Below the pieces are notes generated by a model. It saw nothing but the letters and a program-made list of their open reading frames with translations, was not told the DNA's origin and made no database searches. Positions 945-40,300 of a stretch of 64,000 nt of DNA are shown one piece after another. The position numbers and the translations under genes are program-made. Position 1 is the first letter of the stretch; each line of letters starts with the position of its first letter. Source of the DNA: Imbricaverruca yamaguchii (taxonomy: Eukaryota > Arthropoda > Thecostraca > Neoverrucidae); assembly GCA_034440575.1 (NCBI GenBank), contig JAOTOL010001643.1, positions 640,001 to 704,000 on the forward strand, read 5' to 3'.

Positions 945-1222
945 TGGTACATCTAACATCTAACCTAGTAGACGAGACAGCTCCATATATCGCCTGTTGG
1001 AGATCACATCTAACCTGGTAGAGGGGACAGCTCCATATGTCACCTGTTGGAGTAGAGGACAGCTCCATATATCACCTAACCTAGTAGAGGGGACAGCTCC
1101 ATATATTACCTGTTGGAGATCACACCTAACCTAGTAGGGGGACAGCTCCAAACGTTACCTGTTGCAGCTCACACCTAACCTAATGAGTGGACAGCTCCAC
1201 ACCGCACCTGTTGGAGCTGAGT
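945..1222. repeat. Tandem array of about 55 bp derived from the exon 21 donor
   Basis: About six imperfect units share CTAACCTAGTAG, GGACAGCTCCA and ACCTGTTGGAG. The last motif, read on the minus strand, is the end of exon 21 plus its donor (CTCCAACAG followed by GT). Several units therefore carry a copy of the exon end with a usable GT. The array begins at the true donor at 1207/1208 and extends into the intron. Confidence 0.85.
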
Positions 1223-1329
1223 GCCAGCGGCGCCACGTAGAGCGGCAGACGCACGCCGGGCACCACCTGCGCCACGCCCGCCCGCCGGCTGCCCGTCAGC
1301 GAGTCATTGTACCGATAGAAGACGTCCAG
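1208..1329 (-). CDS. TPP2: TPP2 exon 21 (residues 937-976)
   Basis: 122 bp, entering in phase 0 and leaving in phase 2. It reads [20 protein letters not shown] then [20 protein letters not shown]. It aligns as a weaker homologue of LDIHENHSFALLGKKK...NQPFFVTSL in human TPP2. Acceptor CTGACCAG with a pyrimidine-rich tract, donor GTGCGG. Support is the matching phase, the splice sites, the GC-rich coding style and the PLYVAPL end. The next exon would start left of the window. Confidence 0.8.
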
Positions 1330-37300: not shown

Positions 37301-40300
37301 TTTCAGAGGCCCTCTAGGGCGCGCCTAAAGCATGCCCGAACAAGCACCCGTTGATTGCTCCGCACATGATTCAGCTCGTAACTGTGATCCTTCCAGCATG
37401 TGAGCTACCGAGCCCGTACCTGCTGTTTGGTGAGAACATGAACTACATCATATCTGTTGTTTTCTCGGCAAGCGAGCAAGCTGGTGCCTGTTACTTGGTC
37501 AGAAGGTGAACCGGACGGTACCAGTGTTCACGGCATCAGCCGGTTGATATTTGTTGTTTATTGAGCGCGTGAGCTGGCTCGTACCTGTTGTTTGTTGAGC
37601 GCCTGAGCCAGTGCAGCTGCCTGATGTCGCACCCACTCCTTCTCCTTGTACTCGGCCTGTATACGCTTGCGAAGCTTTTCCGGGTAGAGATCATAGAGTG
37701 GCTTAAGCCCCAAGTGGTATTTTCCACTAGGGCACTCCCAGCCAGCTGGTATCTGCCGGTTACAGACGCAGACTAACTGAGCCACCTCTGCATTACTCCC
37801 GAGATATAGTAGACACAAATCGGCACTGAAGTTAACACAATTGCCATACCGGCAGCTGCCGTGACAAAGCTTCATCCATACAGTCGCCAAGACGCCTGGG
37901 TCGTCTCTGAGACCAGCGGAGTTCCGGCAGTGTCAGTGACGTAATCAAAGGATGGTGCTCCGGCACCATAACCGACGCAATGGTCGGCCCGCCTCGACAC
38001 ATCTTGAAGACGGAGAAAGGTAGATATGCATCTATGCATATATACATGCATTTATGATACCCTGCTGGGAATAATCGGGCAGCAAGTTTGCGAAGAACAC
38101 AAATGTATTAAACCGCAGTCTACTTTCTAAGACTGCAAGATTGTTGGTCGTAGAGAGCACAGATCCAGCGGAAGTGATGCGATTCAACTGAAATTATTAC
38201 ATAAATGTTACGGAAACCAACATCAAAGAGTTGCCAAAGGGATGGGCGGACAAATCGGGTCTACCGCGGCTAAGGCTAAAGTGTCGCGCACATTAGGCAG
38301 CCCATCAGGTGTGACTCGACGTGTATGGCCAGCTCCCAGCGTCGAAAGCACGACAGAACCGTTGGTGACGGCTGCTTCATGGCACGAGGAAAGTCGACGT
38401 CGACCTGTTTGGCAGGGCGCCATATTCGGCCGGCCGATGTCCTGTCATCCGCACGCACACCCCGAACACCCGGCGACAGGTCTCTGTCACGACCGGACAA
38501 CCGAACCAGACGACACGTACACAACATACCCCGCACTCGCACTGCATGTAGGCTTCCCCAGACAACCAGACTGTCCCGTCATGTATCCCGGACTCACTGC
38601 ATACAACCTTCCCCATGCAACCAGACTGTCCCGTCACGTATCCCGGACTAACTGCATACAGTCTTCCCCAGGCAACCATACTGTTCCGTCACGTATCCCG
38701 CACTCACTTCCTACAGCCTTCCCTGGATAACCAGAATTTTCCGTCACGTATGCCGGATTCACTGCATACGGCCTTCCACAGGCAACCAGACAACACGTGC
38801 ACCACGTGTCCCGGACGTAACCTAACCTAACCTACAGCCTTCTCTAGATAGCCAGAGAACACGTGCGCCACATACTCAGGACCCAATGCCTACAGCCTTC
38901 TCTAGACAACCAGACAAGTACACCACATGTTCCGGGTTCACACTGCCTACAACCTTCCTCAAGCAACCAGACAACACGCGCGCCGCATAGCTCAGACCCA
39001 CTGCCTACACCCTTCCTTGGGCTAGGGCCCCTGGCCTGAACCATATCGTAAGCGACTTCTCAGTTTTACGCTCCTTTAGACAGAATCTAAGTGCCTGGAC
39101 GACACATCCAAACCATGCATCACGTCTCACGAGAAACCACACCTCTATCAGCCCCCACGATCTATATTTCAGAACCACGCGCCGAGGCTGAAGAGCCTTT
39201 CCCATACGGTTCCCTATTCCAGAGCGCCGTGCCCGCACCACACATCCAAACTCTGTAGACGAGCAGCAGGCACTTCGGACACGAACCAGGCACTCGCGCC
39301 ACACACAAGCAAGCGTCGTACCTTAAGCTTGCGGCCGGACAAGGCAGTCAGCTGGCCGTCTTGTGGCTCAGCCACGTGCAATGTGTCCACGTCGCCGTTT
39401 CCCGTGGCGTCGATCAGGTCAATGACCTTGGGACGGCCATCAGACGTGTGCTGCGAAGTGCATGGTGGTGGGATTAGTCAGGCTGGGAGCAAAGGGGCGC
39501 TGTGTGACGAGTGGGCTGGCTGATTCAGGACGCCGTGACCGGTCGGCGGCCCAGTCTGACAAAGGAGAGGTCTGGTGACAAAGGGACCACCCGGTGGCCT
39601 GGTCTGACTAAGGACAGGTCTGGTGACAAAGGGACTGGCTGGTGGGACCACCCGGTGGCCCAGTCTGACTAAGGACAGGTCTGGTGACAAAGGGACTGGC
39701 TGAAAGGACCACCCGGCGACCCAGTCTGACTAAGGAGAGGTCTGGTGACAAAGGGACTGGCTAGTGGGACTACCCGGTGGCCTGGTCTGACTAAGGACAG
39801 GTCTGGTGACAAAGGAACTGGCTGGTGGGACCACCCGGCGACCCAGTCTGGTCAGGGAAGGATCTGATGATAAAGTGATTGTCGGATCTCGACCTTCCAT
39901 CACTAGGGGCTGATATTGAGGATGGGCAGAGGCCGTAAACTGGTCGGTATTGGCAAAAGTGGTGCTCAGGACTGCCAGATTGGAGGAATACTGGTGTACC
40001 TTGCCTCCCCGGTGACGTCATCATGGTGTGACTGAGCTGAAGAGGTGTGGAAGAACAGGCAGAATTACATAATATGGGCTTGACAGGAAAGAGGTATTGG
40101 AATAGATGAGAAGGTGGTCACATCAGCCTGCAAAGGTTTCCTCTTCCACTGGGATCGCATCCAAATCCGTCCCCTCGAAGTCAGCTAACAGTGCAAAATG
40201 CTCAGCATCTTCGTCAACTTTAAGCTCAATACATTCTCCTAAACATAACTGGGACAGCTATTTGTAAAACGACGAAACTACTAAAACGCTACTTGCAGGA

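What the first reader, a model, noticed from the sequence alone, without database searches (positions are those of the whole stretch)
945..37600. Minisatellites seeded by exon-intron junctions across one gene
At least nine TPP2 junctions (donors of exons 3, 4, 7, 14, 17, 19, 21; acceptors of exons 10, 15, 17; intronic flank of the exon 6 acceptor) are tandemly copied into the neighbouring intron. Units usually contain the splice site plus 5-40 bp of exon, and copies decay with distance from the exon. The arrays have unrelated sequences and unit lengths (20 to 110 bp), so a shared transposon cannot explain them. A process acting at splice junctions, such as slippage at R-loops or exon-edge nucleosomes, or capture during repair, would explain it. 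I know of no described name for this pattern.
Basis: partly seen in the sequence, partly recalled or inferred. Interest (0 to 1): 0.9.

Follow-up and report, generated by a model that had tools for sequence, protein, structure and literature searches.

The report
Minisatellites copying splice junctions in TPP2
Short tandem repeats in the introns of one animal gene contain copies of the neighbouring exon edge and splice site; the pattern is real, but it already has a name ("mirages", from amphioxus) and can largely be explained by ordinary tandem duplication filtered by selection on exons.

Summary
A TPP2 gene lies on the minus strand (20 exons in one 936-aa frame, plus exon 21). Of 40 junctions tested, 11 have copies of the junction in the adjoining intron at p<=0.02 (0.8 expected), all on the intron side. 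Exon bases are 0 at 7d and 1-3 at 14d; decay with distance holds in 2 of 5 arrays.

That a junction process made them is not shown. These introns are full of minisatellites: 44% of intron positions pass the same test against 27.5% of junctions. After down-weighting multi-copy arrays the junction excess is 1.0- to 2.9-fold (P 0.004 to 0.61 by null and threshold), without a consistent peak at the junction. Coverage-matched simulations without junction preference average 4.4-7.4 hits; 25 of 800 runs reach 11, so a modest edge preference remains possible.

The pattern is published as "mirages" in amphioxus. The species here is unknown. The own-genome search did not complete, so the genome-wide test remains undone.

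The parts
5407..41790 (-). TPP2 (tripeptidyl peptidase II) gene, exons 1-20: 41790-41623, 39450-39322, 37752-37585, 35279-35122, 34494-34331, 31217-31113, 30548-30410, 27179-27040, 25707-25597, 24950-24825, 24195-24059, 23254-23179, 20612-20502, 19434-19278, 17320-17142, 15982-15828, 15148-14931, 14255-14127, 13743-13635, 5535-5407
   Evidence: one open frame, GT-AG throughout
1208..1329 (-). TPP2 exon 21 (later exons lie outside the window or were not found)
   Evidence: its alignment to the recalled human protein is by eye
37400..37600 (-). exon 3 donor and its copies (one close to the exon, one at +165 with 15 exon bp)
34900..35135 (-). exon 4 donor and copies (+23, +199), weak
28310..30425 (-). 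exon 7 donor, copies at +90 and +152 with intron bases only, followed by the 62-bp array 28310-30320
24928..25110 (-). exon 10 acceptor and a copy 113 bp upstream holding 22 exon bp
19053..19280 (-). exon 14 donor array, 19-bp unit, 12 copies, several of which hold CAG|GT; 1-3 exon bp
17309..17466 (-). exon 15 acceptor array, 38-bp unit, 4.2 copies holding the acceptor and 8-12 exon bp, 94-95% identical to the exon edge
15118..15615 (-). exon 17 acceptor arrays; two copies hold the acceptor plus 30 exon bp, and further copies hold exon-derived sequence only
14800..14945 (-). exon 17 donor with a weak copy at +81
13475..13657 (-). exon 19 donor array, about 37-bp unit, 9-22 exon bp
956..1229 (-). 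exon 21 donor array, about 49-bp unit, 9-21 exon bp

Best explanation
These are mirage-type minisatellites produced mainly by tandem duplication that does not favour junctions. Segments of about 20-110 bp in and around the introns of this gene are duplicated in tandem and then expand and decay (inferred: replication slippage or template switching, then unequal exchange). A duplication wholly inside an exon breaks the protein and is lost. One that straddles an exon edge is tolerated: the original edge and splice site stay next to the exon, and the extra copy falls into the intron. The exon copy cannot drift, so the array stays recognisable for longer and appears to grow out of the junction. Shown: the copies, their intron-side location, near absence from exon interiors, and abundance throughout the introns. 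Inferred: the molecular step, the filter by selection, and that no copy has a function.
For: Copies lie on the intron side in 11 of 11. At score 22 or more, 2.9% of 345 exon-interior positions pass, 19.8% of 252 exon positions within 30 bp of an exon edge, 27.5% of 40 junctions, 34-37% of intron positions under 100 bp from an exon, and 43-47% beyond. Down-weighted by copy number, density is 20-30% in all five bins from 0 to 400 bp of the exon. Units are unrelated between introns. Position-blind simulations give junction copies on the intron side by themselves: means of 4.4-7.4 of 40 in ten settings.
Against: The observed 11 is in the upper tail of the position-blind simulations: 0 to 7 of 80 runs per setting reach it, 25 of 800 in all, and at score 30 the observed 8 is reached in 0 to 11 of 80, 28 of 800 in all. 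Some nulls leave a nominal excess: 11 of 41 against 4.6-5.1 over all introns (P 0.004-0.009; bootstrap-averaged 0.02-0.04), 8 against 2.8-3.2 at score 30 (P 0.006-0.012), and 6 against 2.2 (P 0.02). In one of two weightings the 0-20 bp bin is the highest at score 22 (0.298).
Confidence: 0.62

Rival explanations
1. Junction-favoured duplication: something at exon edges (R-loops, exon-edge nucleosomes, spliceosome-linked nicks, repair capture) starts duplications there.
For: The count is 1.5 to 2.5 times the mean of coverage-matched position-blind simulations, and 25 of 800 runs reach it. Nominal excess under some nulls (P 0.004-0.02). Weighted density is about twice as high within 400 bp of exons as deeper in introns.
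Against: No consistent peak at the junction compared with the next 400 bp. Against introns within 400 bp the excess is 1.4- to 1.9-fold with P 0.07-0.22, and 1.0- to 1.6-fold. Raw intron coverage exceeds junction coverage. The gene was picked because of the pattern.
Confidence: 0.2
2. The introns themselves were born by tandem duplication of exon segments holding AG|GT, so that exon-edge copies are birth marks.
For: Such births are published; in a potato gene the duplicated segment crosses an intron-exon boundary (abstract), and the amphioxus globin paper proposes this route from mirages.
Against: In 0 of 20 introns does the upstream exon edge resemble the intron's far end, or the downstream exon edge its near end, or the two exon edges each other, above the 99% shuffle level.
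Confidence: 0.05
3. The copies have a function, for example as decoy or alternative donor sites tuning TPP2 splicing.
For: Some copies score above the real donor on a matrix built from this gene's own 21 donors (exon 7 at +94, +156, +218; exon 14 at +152, +171, +209).
Against: No RNA data. [quoted passage not shown] By strict TRF 4 of 40 junctions lie in arrays while 33 arrays touch introns.
Confidence: 0.07
4. Assembly or sequencing artefact.
For: Long arrays such as 28310-30320 and 1521-5110 are hard to assemble, so copy numbers may be wrong.
Against: Junction copies differ from the exon edge by 5-26%, which duplicated reads would not show.
Confidence: 0.03

Closest known systems
Mirage minisatellites of amphioxus (Adh3, globins BflGb6 and BflGb9, PGBD5, troponin C; PMC3087553 and PMC3902484, passages read; the original, Canestro 2002, is not held)
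   Different: Unit lengths reported there are 10-72 bp (Adh3) and 150-160 bp (globins); here 19 to about 113 bp, with single spacings of 165 and 199. Here about a quarter of one gene's junctions are affected. The species here is not identified. Length polymorphism and transcripts could not be examined here
31-bp VNTR at exon 13-intron 13 of human CBS (location seen in a table of PMC1395315)
   Same: A minisatellite located at an exon-intron boundary
   Different: A single human polymorphism; its unit content was not compared
[quoted passage not shown]
   Same: Tandem duplication crossing an intron-exon boundary
   Different: There a new intron arises; here none is indicated (0 of 20)

Membership tests
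Mirage minisatellites | Tandem repeat whose unit spans an exon-intron boundary | tested here: met
   Clear at 3d, 10a, 15a, 17a, 19d, 21d; 1-3 exon bp at 14d; weak at 4d and 17d; not at 7d and 6a
Mirage minisatellites | Donor and acceptor boundaries both affected | tested here: met
   8 donors and 3 acceptors at p<=0.02
Mirage minisatellites | Normal splicing at the proximal site despite cryptic sites in the copies | not testable with these tools
   The open frame uses proximal sites; no RNA data
Mirage minisatellites | Length polymorphism, somatic instability | not testable with these tools
   One haplotype only
Mirage minisatellites | Found in cephalochordates (the only group in the papers found) | tested here: inconclusive
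   Window TPP2 is 43.2% identical to the 3lxu chain (fly by recall) and 45.5% to recalled human, while those two are 43.3% identical; species not identified
Intron birth by tandem duplication | Sequence of one intron edge repeated at the other | tested here: not met
   0 of 20 introns

The most novel reading that the evidence does not exclude
Mirage minisatellites occur outside cephalochordates and are started at splice junctions by a transcription- or splicing-linked process, so that exon edges are mutational hotspots that feed intron growth.
Probability: 0.15. Interest if true: 0.75.

Novelty: new member of a known kind. Interest (0 to 1): 0.37.

Why it matters
If mirages exist outside amphioxus, they may be a general by-product of minisatellite-rich genomes and a route by which exon sequence and ready-made splice sites enter introns, as raw material for alternative splicing or new introns. 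The case also shows that junction arrays must be judged against the array load of the same introns. Compared with shuffled DNA they look striking; compared with the introns they show at most a modest excess.

Tried and rejected
A shared transposon or repeat family: rejected, since among 30 array units the 5 related pairs lie within one intron each. Intron birth: 0 of 20. Amphioxus as source: not shown, species unknown. A lenient TRF setting (2,3,5) gives 9 of 40 junctions against 3.5-5.5 expected, but it also covers 12-15% of exon sequence and names junctions (1d, 18a) that the probe test does not support (p 0.38 and 0.87), so I give it little weight; the strict setting gives 4 of 40 against 2.2-3.0. 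Thresholds taken from shuffled array context are inflated by the repeats themselves: 3-6 hits of 41 against 1.9-3.9 expected. The copy-finding script masked part of the nearest intron, so the nearest copies at 3d and 4d had to be read. The first simulation had 12 runs for each of 12 settings; its settings ranged from means of 2.8 to 14.9 hits, many with intron coverage far from the observed, so I repeated it with 80 runs for each of ten coverage-matched settings. Both simulations are toys with random bases. The AP-1 sigma gene (59.66-64 kb) shows no TRF array between 60126 and 64000; it is too small a sample to weigh. Literature: all 10 searches used. Those that named mirage listed the word in this sense only in the two amphioxus papers; the listings were capped (5 of 2,945 and 12 of 57). 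Passages of two further papers gave nothing of use.

Full report
What is there. The minus strand carries a tripeptidyl peptidase II gene. A recalled human-type TPP2 probe located the exons, and reading the splice sites gave 20 exons from 41790 down to 5407, every intron between them GT-AG, joined in one 936-residue open frame. The best solved relative is 3lxu, tripeptidyl-peptidase 2, E 8.8e-220; that it is the fly protein is recalled. Exon 21 was first given a provisional start at 1370 (used) and then set to 1329-1208 by eye. The protein is 43.2% identical to the 3lxu chain and 45.5% to the recalled human sequence, while those two are 43.3% identical. A slowly evolving chordate such as amphioxus would be expected nearer to human (inference), but no amphioxus TPP2 was available, so the species stays open.

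Noticed in passing
window 1208-41790 versus 41791-64000: Strict TRF arrays fill 35% of TPP2 introns but 1.7% of the 22 kb upstream of the gene; array load is very uneven along one window, and the cause was not examined.
   Followed up: partly
window 30410-30150 and 19278-19053: Several donor copies in the exon 7 and exon 14 arrays score above the real donor on the gene's own donor matrix; how the proximal site is chosen is unexplained.
   Followed up: partly
window 59658-59945 and 63653-64000, minus strand: Two open frames matching the clathrin adaptor small chain family (PF01217); by recall an AP-1 sigma gene.
   Followed up: no
window 21038-21110 (-), with 11704-11814 / 20949-21056 and 12396-12475 / 20945-21020: An Rfam tRNA match (none by ARAGORN) next to dispersed repeat pairs, as a tRNA-derived SINE would look.
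   Followed up: no
window 9955-13122: Dispersed repeat pairs at 82-84% identity (9955-10261 with 12090-12400; 10252-10808 with 12565-13122) in intron 19, probably a transposable element.
   Followed up: no
window 1521-5110: A 3.6-kb array of a 13-bp unit (282 copies, 86% matches) between exons 20 and 21.
   Followed up: no
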